A stretch of DNA of 64,000 nt from contig NZ_CP070950.1 of the NCBI RefSeq assembly GCF_017084525.1, positions 434,001 to 498,000 on the forward strand, given 5' to 3'. Positions 38,357 to 61,258 of the stretch are shown piece by piece (within the stretch, counting starts at the first letter, position 1; each line of letters starts with the position of its first letter). The notes beneath the pieces were generated by a model, which was not told the DNA's origin, made no database searches, and saw only the letters and a program-made list of their open reading frames with translations. The position numbers and the translations under genes are program-made. The DNA is from Conexibacter sp. SYSU D00693. Its GTDB lineage: Bacteria; Actinomycetota; Thermoleophilia; Solirubrobacterales; Solirubrobacteraceae.

Positions 38357-38399
38357 GGGTGACGCCTCGTGCATGCCTGACATGCACGAGGCGTCACCC
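38357..38399. repeat. Perfect 19-bp inverted repeat with 5-nt loop
   Basis: The arms 38357-38375 and 38381-38399 (starting GGGTGACGCC and ending GGCGTCACCC) match without a single mismatch around the loop CCTGA. It lies eight bases after the CCPHC gene stop and 45 bases before the next start. It could terminate transcription, though no T-run follows. Its length also fits a REP-type element. Confidence 0.75.
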
Positions 38400-40901: not shown

Positions 40902-40937
40902 GCGTGAGAAGAAGGGGACTGTCCCCTTCTTCGCAGA
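40902..40937. repeat. REP-like palindrome, copy 2 of a pair
   Basis: GAAGAAGGGGAC (40908-40919) and GTCCCCTTCTTC (40921-40932) form a perfect 12-bp stem around a single T. The copy begins with the same GCGTGAGAAG as the first and lies 99 bp downstream in direct orientation. It ends three bases before the stop codon of the minus-strand hydrolase, where it could act as its terminator. Confidence 0.8.
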
Positions 40938-45313: not shown

Positions 45314-45697
45314 GTGGCCGAGCAGCCCGAGCGACCATCCAGCCCCGACCGGCCGGCGGCCGAGGACGATCCGGCCGACCGCAGCGCGCACCTCGACGAG
45401 CGCGCCGAGGCCCTCGACCGCCGGGACCACGTCGCCGACCAGCGCGATGCGGTGGCCGACCGCCGTGACCGCGACGCCGACGAGCGCGAACGCCTCGCCG
45501 ACGAGCGCGAACGCCTCGCCGACGAGCGCGAGGGCACGGCCGAGCGCCGCGAGCGCGAGCGCCTCGACCGGCAGCGCGACCGCGACGCCCGCGACTGGGC
45601 GGCACAGCGGCGCGAGCAGGCCGCGATCGACCGCGAGACGGCCGCGGCGCGCCGAGAGGCCGCGGAACGCGACGACGGCGCCGACGACGCCGACTGA
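45314..45697 (+). CDS. Highly charged coiled-coil protein with internal repeat
   Basis: The 127-residue product is mostly Asp, Glu, Arg and Ala, with no aromatic core and no membrane segment. Residues 25-80 repeat a D-x-R-x-A/R-L-A pattern of seven residues (ADERERL in perfect tandem) that would form a long charged coiled coil or single alpha helix. No family is recognised. Codon use is normal for the window. Alternative reading of the same region in other frames gives longer but Arg/Ser-rich products and is not supported. It is located between the methyltransferase and the reductase-like gene. Confidence 0.6.
   Translation: MAEQPERPSSPDRPAAEDDPADRSAHLDERAEALDRRDHVADQRDAVADRRDRDADERERLADERERLADEREGTAERRERERLDRQRDRDARDWAAQRREQAAIDRETAAARREAAERDDGADDAD
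45476..45531 (+). repeat. 21-bp in-frame tandem repeat
   Basis: Two perfect copies of a 21-bp unit (45476-45496 and 45497-45517, each coding ADERERL) are followed by 14 matching bases of a third. The identity at silent positions points to recent slippage or duplication. Confidence 0.85.
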
Positions 45698-56963: not shown

Positions 56964-58706
56964 GTGCTGCACGAGCTGCGCGTCGAGAACCTCCTCCTGA
57001 TCGAGCGGGCCGAGCTGCGGCTGGCGCCCGGGCTGAACGTGCTGACGGGCGAGACGGGTGCGGGCAAGACCGTGCTGGCCCACGCGCTCGACCTCCTGCT
57101 GGGCGGCAAGGCCAAGACGGGCGTCGTGCGCCCGGGCGCGGCGGAGGCCTACGTCGAGGGCGTCTTCGAGCTCACCGAGGCGCTGCGCGAGCTGCTGGGC
57201 GACCGGGTGGCCCCGGACGCGGAGGAGCTCGTCCTCGCGCGCCGCGTCTCGGCCGAAGGGCGCACACGCGCGTACCTCAACGGCCGTTCGGCGCCGGTGG
57301 CCGACCTGCGCGAGGCGGCCGAGGGGCTTCTGAGCTTCTACGGCCAGCACGAGCACCGGCGGCTCACCCTGGCCTCCTCGCAGCTCGAGCTGCTGGACGG
57401 GTTCGCGGGGCCGGCCCAGGCGGCGCGGCGCGCGGCGTGCGCGGCGGCCCATGCGACGGCCCGGCGCCTCGAGGGCTCGCTCGACGAGCTGCGCGAGCGG
57501 GCGGGGGCGCGCGAGCGGGAGCTCGACCTGCTCGAGTTCGAGCTGCGCGAGATCGAGGACGCGGGCCTGACGGAGGGCGAGGAGGCCGAGCTGCAGGCGC
57601 GCCGGTCGCGCCTGCGCCACGTCGAGGCGCTGCGGGCCGCGGCGCTGGGGGCGGCCGAGGCGATCGGGGCCGAGGACGGCGGGGCGGTCGTGGCGCTGGC
57701 GGGCGGCGGCGCGCTGCTCGACGGCGTCGACGGCGTGGACCCGGCGCTCGACGCGCTCGCCGTGCGCTGGCGCGCGCTGGCCATCGAGGCCGACGACCTG
57801 GCCGGCGAGCTGCGCCGGCTGGGGGAGGACCTCGTGGACGGCGAGCCCGGTGAGCTCGACCGGGTCGAGGACCGCCTCGGGCTCTACGACCGCCTGTGTC
57901 GCAAGCACGGCGGGAGCGTCGCCGCGGTCCTCGCGCACGCCGACGCGTGCCGTCTGCGCCGGGACGAGCTCGACCGGGCCGAGGTCGCGCTCGAGGAGGC
58001 GACGGCCGCCCTCGACGCCGCCCGCGCCGAGCACGCCCGCGTGGCGGCCGAGCTCCACGAGGCGCGCGCCGCGGCCGCCGGTCCGCTCGCCGAGGCCGTG
58101 CGCGAGCGTCTGGCCGAGCTGGCCATGGATGGCGCCTCCTTCGAGATCGCCCTCGGCGCCCGCGAGCCCGGCCCCACCGGCACCGACGCCGTCGAGTTCC
58201 TCATCGCGCCGAACCCCGGCGTCCCGCCGGCGCCGCTGCGCGAGACCGCCTCGGGCGGCGAGCTGTCGCGGGTCATGCTGGCGCTCACCGCGACGGCCGC
58301 GCAGTCCGCGGCGGCCGCCGCCGCGAAGGGCGGCACGGGGGCGAAGGGGGCCGCCAAGGCCGGCACCGCCACCGGCACCCCGGTGACCACCGCGGGCGGC
58401 GCGACGCTGGTCTTCGACGAGATCGACGCCGGCATCGGCGGTCACACCGCCCGCGCGGTCGGCGAGCAGCTCCGCGCGCTCGGCGAGGGCCGCCAGGTCC
58501 TGGCCATCACCCACCTCCCGCAGGTCGCCTCGCTCGCCGCCCGCCACTTCTCCATCGAGAAGGACACCTCCGTCGAGCCCGCGCGCACCACGGTTCGCAC
58601 CCTCGCCTCCAAGGAGGTCGTCGGCGAGCTCGTCCGGATGCTCGGTGCCGACGAGACGGACATGGCCGCGCGGCGGCACGCCAAGGACCTGCTGCGAGCG
58701 GCGTAG
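56964..58706 (+). CDS. recN: DNA repair protein RecN
   Basis: RecN is an SMC-like ATPase acting in double-strand break repair. The 580-residue protein has Walker A GETGAGKT at residues 29-36, a pair of long coiled-coil arms, the signature [13 protein letters not shown] and Walker [14 protein letters not shown]. Between the signature and Walker B is an extra Ala/Gly/Thr-rich stretch of about 35 residues absent from the E. coli or B. subtilis proteins I know. The GTG start is supported by the early N-terminal [15 protein letters not shown] consensus SOS box precedes it. Confidence 0.96.
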
Positions 58707-58730
58707 GCGCCGCACGGGTGGCCTCATCGC

Positions 58731-58773
58731 GACCCTGAGGTTGACCGCCACAGACGCGGTCAAGCCCAGGGTC
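58731..58773. repeat. Palindrome A with GACCCTG / CAGGGTC ends
   Basis: GACCCTG (58731-58737) pairs with CAGGGTC (58767-58773), and TTGACCGC (58741-58748) pairs with GCGGTCAA (58756-58763), with three-base bulges between and a seven-base loop. It starts 25 bp after the recN stop, so it may also serve as its terminator. Confidence 0.8.
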
Positions 58774-58782
58774 ACGGGCGCC

Positions 58783-58895
58783 GGGGTGGCGTTCCGTGCG
58801 GGGCGGGGGTGATGGTCGGGGCGTGGGCTGGTTCGGCAGTGAGGGAGGGGAGGGTTCGGGCGGGGGTGGCGTTCCGTTCCGGGCGGGGGTGGTGG
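58783..58895 (+). repeat. Direct repeat of a 33-bp GGCGTTCCG block
   Basis: Copies at 58783-58815 and 58863-58895, 80 bp apart, share GGGGTGGCGTTCCGT and a downstream GGGCGGGGGTG. The GGCGTTCC core reappears in reverse complement inside the tandem units at 59152-59317. Confidence 0.7.
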
Positions 58896-58934
58896 GCGGT
58901 CGGTGGCCATCGAGCCCACACCGATCGCCACGAG

Positions 58935-58971
58935 CCTGAAGTTGAGGTCCGCCCAGGACCCGAACTTCAGG
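58935..58971. repeat. Palindrome B with CCTGAAGTT / AACTTCAGG arms
   Basis: CCTGAAGTT (58935-58943) pairs perfectly with AACTTCAGG (58963-58971), and GGTCC (58946-58950) pairs with GGACC (58956-58960). The right flank continues to GTC, so that its reverse complement, GACCCTGAAGTT, resembles the left arm of palindrome A. Confidence 0.8.
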
Positions 58972-59029
58972 GTCATCGACGCGCGGGGCCCCAAGTCCGA
59001 ACCGGCCCGCACTTCGGCCCGGATCGACC

Positions 59030-59076
59030 GTGACCCTGTCTTTCCCGGTCTCCCACGCCGGAGATGACAGGGTCAC
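59030..59076. repeat. Palindrome C with perfect 11-bp GTGACCCTGTC arms
   Basis: GTGACCCTGTC (59030-59040) matches GACAGGGTCAC (59066-59076) exactly, with an inner TCTCC/GGAGA pair. The GACCCTG core is shared with palindrome A. Confidence 0.8.
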
Positions 59077-59151
59077 GGATGCGGGGTCCGGATCGACCGC
59101 CCGCCGCCGCGTCCGAAGGACCGCCCACTGCCGTCGGCGTTCCGGGCGCGC

Positions 59152-59382
59152 CCCGAGGGGAACGCCTGCGCGGTTCGCCCGGTCTGCCTCGGTGCCGGTC
59201 AGCGCCCGCTGCGCCAGCCATTCCACGCCCGAGGGGAACGCCTCCCCGGCTCGCCTCCTCTGCCTCGGTGCCGATCAGCGCCCGCCGCGCCAGCCACCCA
59301 CGCCCGAGGGGAACGCCACCGCCGCCGGCGCCTTCCCTCCTTCCGTGCCGATCAGCGCCCGCCGCGCCGACCCCCGAACGCC
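59152..59382 (+). repeat. Three tandem units of about 75 bp
   Basis: CCCGAGGGGAACGCC starts at 59152, 59228 and 59303, so the period is 76 and 75 bp. Each unit continues with TCTGCCTCGGTGCCG- or TTCCGTGCCG-like and ATCAGCGCCCG-like segments. The units diverge between these blocks, so the array is not a recent simple duplication. Confidence 0.75.
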
Positions 59383-59443
59383 GGAGCGGCGCGCCGACAA
59401 CGCCCGCGCAGCACCCCGCCCCGCCGCGCCAGCCACGAGCCGC

Positions 59444-61258
59444 TCACCCCACGTCCAGCACGTTCGCCTGCCCCGCCCGCCACCGCTGACGGTCCAGCGC
59501 CTTCAGCCCCGCGAACTCCGGCGGGTCGAGCAGCCGGAACTTCTTCGCCGGCCTGGCCTTGGACCCCGAGGCGTCGAGGATCGCGTTCGCCGCCTCGCGA
59601 CCGGACTCGTTGGCGCCCTCCATCGTCGCCAGGTCGATGTCCGTCTGGACGTAGTCGCCCGCGAGCAGGAGGTTCGGGATGGGGGTCCGGGCCGTCGGGC
59701 GCTTGTCCCACGAGTCGACGGTGTTGATGAGCAGCGGGTCGTCGTTGCGGTGCTCGCCGCGGCGCTTGACCCACGCGATGCCCGGGTCGAGGAACCACGA
59801 GTGCAGGGCGCTGTCGGGCAGGACGGTCCGGCCGTCGTCGTTGAGGTGGGCCTGCATCTGGGCCCAGACCTCGCGGGCGACCTCCTCCTTCGTGCACCGC
59901 CGCGCGGGCTTGCCGAAGAGGATCCCGTCCGTGCCCCAGTCGCTGACGTCGACCGAGAGGCAGTCGACGACGGTGCCGTCGCCGTAGTCGCGCGTGAACC
60001 GGCGCTCGCCCCAGAACTGGCCCTGCGTGAGGCAGGTCAGCGCCCACGGCGCGTCGACGAACGTCACGTGGCCCCGGATGAGGTGGACCGGCTCCTTGAG
60101 GAAGAACTGGATGCCGTTCATCCAGTCGACCACGAGGTCGTCCATCGCCTCGAGGTGCGGTGCGGCGCGCAGGACGTCGGGCGACCAGAGCTTGCGCGCG
60201 CGTTCGGCCGGCAGGGCGCAGACGTACCAGTCGGCCTCGACCGTCCGGCGCACGCCCTTGGCGTCGCGGACCCGCACGCCGGTGATGCGCCCGTCACGGA
60301 CGTCGAGGCGCTCGACGGTGTGGCCGACCGCGAAGCGCACGCCGTGCTTGCCCGCCAGGAGGTCGATCCAGGGGTCGATCCACGCCTCGTTCGTCGGTGC
60401 GTCCAGCACGCGGTCGGGCGCCCCGTCGGCGCCGCGGCCCATGAAGTTCAGGACGAACGCCTCGGCCATGTTGCCGATCGTCCGGGTGCTGGCGATGCGC
60501 TCCTTCGCCGCGACGAGCGCGCGCGTGAGCCCGGTGGCGACGACCTTCTGGTACTCCGCCGACCGGCCGTCGGCGTTGACGAACTCCCACCACGAGGTGC
60601 GCTCCCACTGGCCGAACCGGCGCTCGTCGCAGCTCGTGACGAAGACCAGGAGCCGCTCGACGAAGTACAGGAGCTCGTGCGGCGGGACCGCCTGCTGCTT
60701 GAGCAGCTCCTCGACCAGCACGCGCCGCAGCCCCTCGACCGTCAGCGCCTGGCCCGGGTCGGGCAGCAGGCCGAAGAGCGTCGCCTCGGCGCGGCCGCCC
60801 GCGCGCGTCGACCGCGTCTCCATCGCCGGCACGAGGTTGTCCCACACGCCGTTGGCGTTCCCGTCGACCGGGATGCGCCGCATCGTGTCCGGGACGTGGT
60901 GGTAGAAGCCGGGGAAGAAGCGGAAGCCGTGCTCGCCGGGCAGGTCGCGGCGCCCGCCGGTGCCCGTGCCGGGGACCGGGATCGACCGCGCCTTGCCGCC
61001 CAGCGCCTTGCGCTCGACCACCAGGACCTCGAAGCCGCGCTCGGCCAGCTCGTGCGCGGCCGCCAGGCCGGCCATGCCGCCGCCGAGCACGGCGACGCGC
61101 TTGCCGCCCGCCTGCCGCGCCCGGGCCCTCGACCGCCGCGAGCGCGACCGCGCCAGCGCCTCCGCGGGCAGCACGCCGCCCGCCGCCACCGTCGCCCCGG
61201 CTGCCGCCGCGCCGCGAAGCACCTCGCGGCGGGACAGCCCCTGCTGCTGCTCGTCCAC
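59444..61258 (-). CDS. Tat-exported FAD-dependent amine-oxidase-like oxidoreductase
   Basis: The 604-residue protein has a twin-arginine signal (SRREVLRGAAAAGATVAAGG, Arg10-Arg11), so it should be exported folded with its flavin. The FAD fold follows: VAVLGGGMAGLAAAHELAERG, then LGGKARSIP. The C-terminal FAD-binding segment has LLLAGDYVQTDIDLATMEGA. These match phytoene-desaturase-like, hydroxysqualene-dehydroxylase-like and amine-oxidase-like flavoproteins. The substrate is unknown. A GTG start is preceded six bases upstream by TAGCGT. It lies in the opposite direction to recN and steA, breaking their usual adjacency. Confidence 0.88.
   Translation of the reverse strand: MDEQQQGLSRREVLRGAAAAGATVAAGGVLPAEALARSRSRRSRARARQAGGKRVAVLGGGMAGLAAAHELAERGFEVLVVERKALGGKARSIPVPGTGTGGRRDLPGEHGFRFFPGFYHHVPDTMRRIPVDGNANGVWDNLVPAMETRSTRAGGRAEATLFGLLPDPGQALTVEGLRRVLVEELLKQQAVPPHELLYFVERLLVFVTSCDERRFGQWERTSWWEFVNADGRSAEYQKVVATGLTRALVAAKERIASTRTIGNMAEAFVLNFMGRGADGAPDRVLDAPTNEAWIDPWIDLLAGKHGVRFAVGHTVERLDVRDGRITGVRVRDAKGVRRTVEADWYVCALPAERARKLWSPDVLRAAPHLEAMDDLVVDWMNGIQFFLKEPVHLIRGHVTFVDAPWALTCLTQGQFWGERRFTRDYGDGTVVDCLSVDVSDWGTDGILFGKPARRCTKEEVAREVWAQMQAHLNDDGRTVLPDSALHSWFLDPGIAWVKRRGEHRNDDPLLINTVDSWDKRPTARTPIPNLLLAGDYVQTDIDLATMEGANESGREAANAILDASGSKARPAKKFRLLDPPEFAGLKALDRQRWRAGQANVLDVG

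What the first reader, a model, noticed from the sequence alone, without database searches (positions are those of the whole stretch)
58707..59443. Repeat-filled gap at the recN-steA junction with three related palindromes and a 75-bp tandem array
Seen: palindromes A (58731-58773), B (58935-58971) and C (59030-59076) have GACCCTG/CAGGGTC-type elements; a GGCGTTCCG block is duplicated; three units of about 75 bp follow, and the GGCGTTCC core recurs reversed in those units. This is by far the most repeat-dense region of the window, and no gene is supported in it. Inference: it may be a family of intergenic mobile repeats, a structured non-coding RNA locus or a DNA-protein site array.
Basis: seen in the sequence. 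Interest (0 to 1): 0.68.

Follow-up and report, generated by a model that had tools for sequence, protein, structure and literature searches.

The report
Nuclease genes with dispersed palindromes
The repeats in this gap are copies of short palindromes that also bracket genes for an unstudied DNA-cutting enzyme, and the same pairing of enzyme gene and scattered palindromes recurs in related bacteria, which suggests a little-known kind of mobile DNA.

Summary
The repeats are real. The three palindromes are each 43 bp and belong to a genome-wide family of 66 sites that is nearly absent from 150 relatives. Two pairs of them, each exactly 946 bp apart, bracket single genes for an AbiEi-DUF559 protein: an antitoxin-like winged helix fused to a Vsr/EDxHD-type nuclease. 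Six of the genome's nine DUF559 genes carry their own palindrome pair. The pattern recurs across Actinomycetota: 22 of 63 testable DUF559 loci have matching ends, against 0 of 225 control genes. In 15 of 18 chosen genomes the local palindrome also has solo copies. In two genomes where solo copies were aligned, similarity stops at the palindrome edges. Best reading: tiny mobile repeats whose complete form is palindrome, nuclease gene, palindrome; a REP/RAYT-like design with an unrelated enzyme. Movement by the nuclease is inferred: no empty site, no target duplication and no activity was seen. The 76-bp tandem and GGCGTTCC blocks belong to a separate, unexplained arm module found in many of these gaps.

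The parts
58731..58773 (.). palindrome A, beta-type 43-mer (84% identical to the 3' palindrome of the DUF559 gene at G000:513828-514661)
58932..58974 (.). palindrome B, gamma variant of the 43-mer (77% identical to the beta unit palindrome); no nuclease gene with this variant was seen
59032..59074 (.). palindrome C, alpha-type 43-mer (86% identical to the 3' palindrome of the DUF559 gene at G000:839146-840102)
58788..58800 (+). arm module X, GGCGTTCC block (a second GGCGTTCC begins at 58868)
58836..58851 (+). arm module Y (GCAGTGAGGGAGGGGA)
59136..59166 (.). X and inverted X close together (GGCGTTCC ... GGGGAACGCC)
59152..59368 (-). 76-bp tandem array, 2.9 copies: reiterated inverted Y-X arm module
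56964..58706 (+). recN, left convergent neighbour
59444..61258 (-). flavin amine oxidoreductase, right convergent neighbour
38360..38396 (.). solo copy of another palindrome family (T, 37 bp, 95% identical to the palindrome that ends the DUF559 gene at G000:962621-963493)

Best explanation
The palindromes are solo copies of very small mobile repeats. The complete form is a unit of about 0.9-1.1 kb: palindrome, gene for an AbiEi-DUF559 protein, palindrome. In the typical unit the start codon lies inside the 5' palindrome and the stop codon abuts or overlaps the 3' palindrome. I infer that the protein binds its own palindrome through the AbiEi-type winged helix, cuts it or the target with the Vsr/EDxHD-type domain, and that break repair or strand transfer then places new palindrome copies at other sites, as RAYTs are thought to do for REPs. 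In this genome copies are found mainly between convergent genes. Shown here: the paired anatomy, the family-specific dispersal, the sharp edges in two relatives, and the fold with its conserved residues. Inferred: binding, cleavage and the transfer step.
For: 66 sites of the 43-mer in G000 (recounted). Pairs 946 bp apart at 513707/514653 and 839098/840044 each bracket one DUF559 gene. PF04480 has 9 hits in G000; 8 have a palindrome near one or both ends and 6 have a matching pair. Paired-flank test: 14 of 37 loci (9 own, 28 of relatives) score 43-96 against a cross-locus maximum of 37; 8 of 26 testable loci of the phylum sample score 43-103 against a cross-locus maximum of 36; 0 of 225 control genes of the own genome reach 43, maximum 41. 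Dispersal: 10 of 10 genomes and 5 of 8 hold further copies of their own palindrome; one separate weak cross-hit (G023, E 0.007) was listed. Sharp edges: in 10-base bins information falls from 1.3-1.8 bits inside to 0.3-0.7 just outside the palindrome in G027 and G104. An in-frame start lies inside the 5' palindrome in 12 of 17 loci with a listed 5' dyad, 9 of them with ATG. Fold: AbiEi 6y8q Z 13.2, I-Bth0305I 3r3p Z 12.1, Vsr 1cw0 Z 10.7. D252, E263, D265 and D279 are invariant and H270 nearly so in 32 proteins. Paralogues differ most at third codon positions. Stems keep pairing through double changes.
Against: No empty versus filled orthologous site was seen, so movement itself is not demonstrated. 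No target duplication: exact flanking repeats of 4 or more bases in 1 of 19 (G027), 0 of 20 (G104), 0 of 21 (G038) and 1 of 66 (G000) copies, not above shuffles. 41 of 63 testable DUF559 loci lack a matching pair by this test. G188, G287 and G182 hold only the unit's own two copies. Pair orientation is mixed: 10 of 14 inverted, 4 direct, and both kinds again among the 8. A hairpin at the 3' end alone is not significantly enriched over other gene ends (13 of 38 against 8 of 43 at score 12; p = 0.084). The convergent-gap bias of G000 is not general: G038 copies are divergent 8, tandem 6, convergent 5, unplaced 4. In G000 and G038 part of the immediate flank is also conserved. No gene was seen with the gamma palindrome (B).
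Confidence: 0.66

Rival explanations
1. Operator and terminator: the AbiEi-type winged helix autoregulates its gene at the 5' palindrome, the 3' palindrome is a terminator, and dispersed copies form a regulon or nucleoid-site set.
For: AbiEi-type fold; the palindrome often covers the start codon; ordinary gene ends also often carry hairpins.
Against: The two ends match each other in sequence, which autoregulation plus a terminator does not require. Copies in G000 sit in 2 of 63 divergent gaps against 28 of 43 convergent ones, not where promoters lie; in G038, however, 8 of 23 are divergent. Copies in two relatives have unrelated flanks and sharp edges. Each family is nearly confined to its own genome.
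Confidence: 0.13
2. Homing endonuclease model: the solo palindrome is the target, the nuclease gene spreads by inserting beside or between palindromes, and the palindromes multiply by another route such as break-induced gene conversion.
For: The nuclease domain is closest to the EDxHD homing endonuclease I-Bth0305I and to NGO0050; pair orientation is mixed; no target duplication.
Against: A homing gene interrupts its target, but here a complete palindrome stands on each side. Solo copies outnumber genes in most of the genomes tested and have sharp edges at unrelated sites in two.
Confidence: 0.13
3. Ordinary REP/BIME elements mobilised by the RAYT-type (Y1) transposases of this genome.
For: Three PF01797 hits in G000; size and intergenic placement resemble REPs.
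Against: The Y1 gene in L025 has a different hairpin (AAGGGGACTGTCCCCTT type) on both sides and L024 holds yet another; none of the 66 sites lies in the three Y1 loci. The 43-mers bracket DUF559 genes instead.
Confidence: 0.04
4. Transcription terminators or structured RNAs without mobility.
For: Convergent-gap bias in G000 and compensatory changes in stems.
Against: Shared primary sequence across 66 sites; 0 of 66 copies have 5 T in 8 nt within 15 nt downstream on either strand; no Rfam family near threshold; sharp edges in relatives.
Confidence: 0.04

Closest known systems
REP elements with REP-associated tyrosine transposases (RAYT, REPtrons, TIRtrons)
   Same: Gene bounded by palindromes or inverted repeats that can also be dispersed; repeats may overlap the gene ends; distribution typical of mobile DNA (PMC3733652, passages).
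   Different: The enzyme is an AbiEi-DUF559 nuclease; no Y1 domain was found in the Pfam scans of six proteins. The window family reads GACCCTG...CAGGGTC, without GTAG or CGTC at its end.
CGTC-tagged REPs, described as lacking a dedicated transposase (PMC3733652, abstract and passages)
   Same: Dispersed palindromes without a Y1 mobiliser.
   Different: The 43-mers end in GGTC. Whether CGTC REPs pair with DUF559 genes was not tested.
EDxHD homing endonucleases (I-Bth0305I)
   Same: Fold (Z 12.1) and profile match (3r3p, E 5.4e-5). One paper assigns a DUF559 gene to this family (PMC9403480, one passage).
   Different: Gene between complete palindromes, fused to an AbiEi-type domain.
Vsr endonuclease and Vsr-like DUF559 proteins such as Caulobacter VsrA (PMC12907096, passages)
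   Same: Same nuclease superfamily.
   Different: Predicted there to act in mismatch repair; the main text has no occurrence of 'palindrom'.
AbiE type IV toxin-antitoxin, AbiEi antitoxin
   Same: N-terminal 200 residues (6y8q Z 13.2; PADLOC AbiEi).
   Different: A nuclease domain is fused to it; an AbiEii partner was not looked for.
BIMEs and MITEs (definitions recalled)
   Same: Mosaic gaps with several palindromes and inverted arm modules; non-autonomous copies.
   Different: No target duplication; the putative full-length form carries an unusual nuclease, not a transposase.

Membership tests
REP/RAYT (REPtron) | cognate Y1 HUH transposase flanked by the palindromes | tested here: not met
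   no site lies in Y1 loci L024-L026, which show other hairpins or none; 43-mers flank DUF559 genes
REP/RAYT (REPtron) | GTAG or CGTC at one end of the repeat | tested here: not met
   43-mers read GACCCTG...CAGGGTC (A1); definition from the abstract of PMC3733652
REP/RAYT (REPtron) | dispersed intergenic palindromes, species-specific | tested here: met
   66 sites, nearly absent in 150 relatives
EDxHD homing endonuclease | fold of the catalytic domain | tested here: met
   3r3p Z 12.1, rmsd 2.2 over 92 residues
EDxHD homing endonuclease | catalytic residues | tested here: inconclusive
   D252, E263, D265, D279 invariant, H270 nearly invariant, but residues were not superposed on 3r3p
EDxHD homing endonuclease | site-specific cleavage and insertion into the empty allele | not testable with these tools
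   needs cleavage assays or strain comparison
AbiE toxin-antitoxin | AbiEi antitoxin fold | tested here: met
   6y8q Z 13.2; PADLOC AbiEi best E 1e-25 to 9.6e-33 in six of six proteins
AbiE toxin-antitoxin | adjacent AbiEii toxin gene | not tested
   neighbours of the units were not annotated
MITE | terminal inverted repeats shared with an autonomous transposon | tested here: inconclusive
   palindromes are shared with the DUF559 unit, but pair orientation is mixed
MITE | target site duplication | tested here: not met
   no excess of exact flanking repeats in 19, 20, 21 and 66 copies; imperfect duplications not tested
Structured RNA family | match to an Rfam family at gathering score | tested here: not met
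   best match 22 bits against a gathering score of 95

The most novel reading that the evidence does not exclude
AbiEi-DUF559 proteins are the mobilising enzymes of a class of palindromic mobile element in Actinomycetota that I found nowhere in the papers searched: a Vsr/homing-endonuclease-type nuclease, not a transposase, spreads its own short terminal palindromes (about 34-55 bp), with the start codon built into one palindrome and the stop codon against the other.
Probability: 0.52. Interest if true: 0.9.

Novelty: new variant of a known kind. Interest (0 to 1): 0.8.

Why it matters
Short dispersed palindromes are common in bacterial genomes, and some families are described as lacking a dedicated transposase (CGTC REPs, PMC3733652). 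The same genome-level signature with an unrelated nuclease would offer a candidate enzyme for orphan palindrome families and a function for a domain still named 'unknown function'. It is directly testable: each nuclease comes with its own predicted DNA partner, and the 16 relative loci with matching ends supply matched and mismatched pairs as controls.

Tried and rejected
RNA reading: Rfam search of 58400-59700 gave 3 matches, all far below gathering scores.

Giant hairpin: left and right arms of one gap are no more complementary than arms of different gaps (44 scored gaps of 47; mean rank fraction 0.53; the own pair was never the best). Only the arms outside the outermost palindromes were compared.

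RAYT as mobiliser: rejected on location and hairpin mismatch.

'Russian doll' insertion of palindromes into the centres of older palindromes, to explain the X and Y arms: of the four X pairs within 25 bp found only the one in the window is an X pair (the other three are S palindromes), and no Y pair closer than 150 bp was found. Left open, not claimed.

3' hairpin enrichment alone: not significant (p = 0.084). The claim rests on the matching of both ends.

Short, unfused DUF559 proteins of the phylum sample (such as L365, L367, L368, L371) score 17, but the test region 780-1150 bp upstream of the stop does not suit genes of that length, so they are no control.

Target duplications and T runs: tested, none above shuffles and 0 of 66.

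Plasmids and phages: (two query proteins) one plasmid record each, the same Tsukamurella plasmid, covers 80% or more of the query; a third query found nothing in phages. The flanks of the plasmid gene were not read.

Literature: nine searches. None of the listed papers shows, by title or start of abstract, DUF559 genes flanked by palindromes; one search listed 20 of 964. The library is open-licence PMC only. Passages of three papers were read, no whole text.

Rows dropped: of 39 DUF559 loci (L236-L274) 37 entered the paired test (L259 and L267 left out for coordinates) and 32 proteins entered A3 (L236, L244, L251, L254, L255 and L259 gave no protein; L274 was dropped because its N-terminal part looked out of frame). 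Of 29 phylum loci 26 were testable (L366, L379, L392 too short). The 225 control genes come from own-genome stretches chosen around repeats and include one DUF559 gene without a pair. The 17 loci with a 5' dyad were picked by me. Start codons are my choices. Gene calls are from a codon-usage caller written here, not an annotation.

Full report
Observation. The gap between recN (56964-58706, plus) and a convergent flavin amine oxidoreductase (59444-61258, minus; PF01593) holds three 43-bp palindromes at 58731-58773, 58932-58974 and 59032-59074, GGCGTTCC blocks, and a 76-bp tandem array at 59152-59368. steA is the next gene along. GACCCTG-N12-42-CAGGGTC occurs at 32 sites in the 4.43 Mb genome, against 2 for the reversed control.

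A dispersed, species-specific family. A covariance model built from 24 copies (R1) finds 128 strand matches at E 0.01, which I merged to 66 sites. The same model over 150 relatives, with stricter filters, gives one or two weak hits (27-30 bits) in each of 8 genomes; of the six same-genus genomes five have none and one has one. A recN scan places the organism in Solirubrobacteraceae; the highest best-segment identity listed is 71%, and records of the genome itself may be left out there. In the fetched stretches, gaps of 60 bp or more that hold a 43-mer are 28 of 43 convergent, 18 of 102 tandem and 2 of 63 divergent (odds ratio 13.5 for convergent against the rest, p = 1e-11). The stretches were chosen around copies, so the fractions are inflated, but the contrast between gap types stands. 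In 24 aligned copies the inner stem varies with compensation: 60 cells changed on both sides against a shuffled mean of 24, and 90% of cells paired.

The carrier genes. Two palindrome pairs are exactly 946 bp apart (513707/514653 and 839098/840044), and each brackets one open reading frame. Both frames match PF04480 (DUF559), which has nine hits in the genome. Eight of the nine have a palindrome near one or both ends; six have a matching pair (L237, L238, L239, L240, L241, L243), L236 and L242 have one palindrome, and L244 has only a terminator-like hairpin. The pairs differ in sequence from gene to gene, and several are the other palindromes seen in the repeat-filled gaps (the output was cut). 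Counted only in the fetched stretches, so as lower bounds, these palindromes have 25 (alpha), 23 (beta), 10 (S), 8 (T), 14 (Q), 4 (U), 1 (T') and 1 (L242) copies. The window itself holds a solo T copy at 38360-38396.

Test of the link. PF04480 rings in 71 of 101 genomes of the relatives search. For each DUF559 locus I compared the region 780-1100 bp upstream of the stop with the region around the stop. Of 37 loci (9 of G000, 28 of relatives) 14 score 43-96; pairing one locus's 5' end with another's 3' end never exceeds 37. Of 225 control genes of 600-1300 bp in own-genome stretches none reaches 43 (maximum 41); one of the 225 is itself a DUF559 gene without a pair. In a sample of 149 genomes across the phylum, 57 have DUF559 matches; of 26 testable new loci 8 score 43-103, against a cross-locus maximum of 36 (region widened to 1150 bp). 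A 3' hairpin alone is not significantly enriched (13 of 38 against 8 of 43; p = 0.084).

Dispersal in other genomes. Ten palindromes from ten relatives were joined into one query: in the listed rows (the list was cut) every genome was hit only by its own palindrome, with further copies in all ten, from at least one or two (G113, G005, G002) to more than twenty (G104, G038). The first look scored at most 40 candidates per genome, so counts are lower bounds. Of eight further genomes, five (G166, G277, G023, G243, G237) have copies beyond the unit and three (G188, G287, G182) have only the unit's own two; one separate weak cross-hit (G023, E 0.007) appeared, and some G277 rows run into the neighbouring segment of the joined query. 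These 18 genomes are the 16 relatives with a matching pair plus two with a single or sub-threshold one, so they are not a random sample. In G027 (21 copies) and G104 (22 copies), the unit's own two included, similarity stops at the palindrome edges; in G038 (23 copies) and in G000 (66 copies) some immediate flank is shared. Gene context in relatives is mixed: G027 convergent 7, tandem 8, divergent 3, inside a, unplaced 1; G104 7, 5, 1, 0 and 9; G038 5, 6, 8, 0 and 4. No exact target duplications stand out. G027 copies keep pairing through double changes (20 cells against a shuffled mean of 9.7).

Anatomy of the unit. In one search the 3' palindrome overlaps or abuts the stop in 10 of 14 pairs, and the 5' copy lies about 815-1060 bp upstream of the stop over. 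In 12 of 17 loci with a listed 5' dyad an in-frame start lies inside it, 9 of them with ATG, often in the loop. In the alpha and beta units the chosen start is 9 nt before the palindrome and the frame runs through it. This would explain why many solo copies carry TATG in the loop. Pairs are inverted in 10 and direct in 4 of the 14.

The protein. The 33 proteins have 272-334 residues. In six scanned, the first 200 residues are AbiEi-like (PADLOC; 6y8q Z 13.2) and the last 100 match DUF559 above its cut-off; REase_MTES_1575 also matches, mostly below its cut-off. A model from 32 sequences has mean pLDDT 92. Its nuclease domain matches the EDxHD homing endonuclease I-Bth0305I (Z 12.1), NGO0050 (Z 11.9), Vsr (Z 10.7) and, at a level that may mean only a common fold, TnsA (Z 7.8). 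The profile also finds 3hrl (1.2e-14) and 3r3p (5.4e-5) by sequence. D252, E263, D265, D279, G290 and R295 are invariant and H270 nearly so. Paralogues differ 1.4-2.1 times more often at third than at first or second codon positions, which fits a working protein.

Interpretation. The simplest reading is a family of mobile repeats whose complete form is palindrome, AbiEi-DUF559 gene, palindrome, and whose solo copies collect in intergenic gaps. The design is that of REP and RAYT, but the Y1 genes of this genome carry other hairpins and the enzyme is unrelated. That the nuclease does the moving is an inference from pairing, specificity and fold; no movement was observed. Homing and autoregulation are live rivals.

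What stays unexplained. The X and Y arms beside many of the palindromes (Y model R2, 73 matches in this genome and one marginal match in the six same-genus genomes) mostly point towards the centre of the gap, but arms of one gap are not matched to each other. The 76-bp tandem of the window is a reiteration of this arm module.

Noticed in passing
window 40908-40932: A hairpin GAAGAAGGGGACTGTCCCCTTCTTC, the same type that flanks the Y1 transposase gene in L025, so RAYT-type repeats coexist with the 43-mer family in this genome.
   Followed up: partly
window 38360-38396: Solo 37-bp T palindrome, 95% identical to the palindrome that ends the DUF559 gene at G000:962621-963493.
   Followed up: yes
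L153 (G000 1149279-1150003), L168, L155, L141: Tandem duplications of roughly 170-340 bp that include a 43-mer and its surroundings.
   Followed up: no
G277, contigs C7 and C4: Palindrome or half-palindrome hits spaced 62 bp apart in short arrays, as if the palindrome also amplifies in tandem.
   Followed up: no
gaps of L137-L186 and L218-L234: Mostly inward-pointing arm modules X and Y of unknown origin beside many palindromes; nearly absent from the six same-genus genomes.
   Followed up: partly
window 45415-45577: Tandem repeats of 21 and 42 bp, the next highest TRF scores in the window (132 and 114).
   Followed up: no
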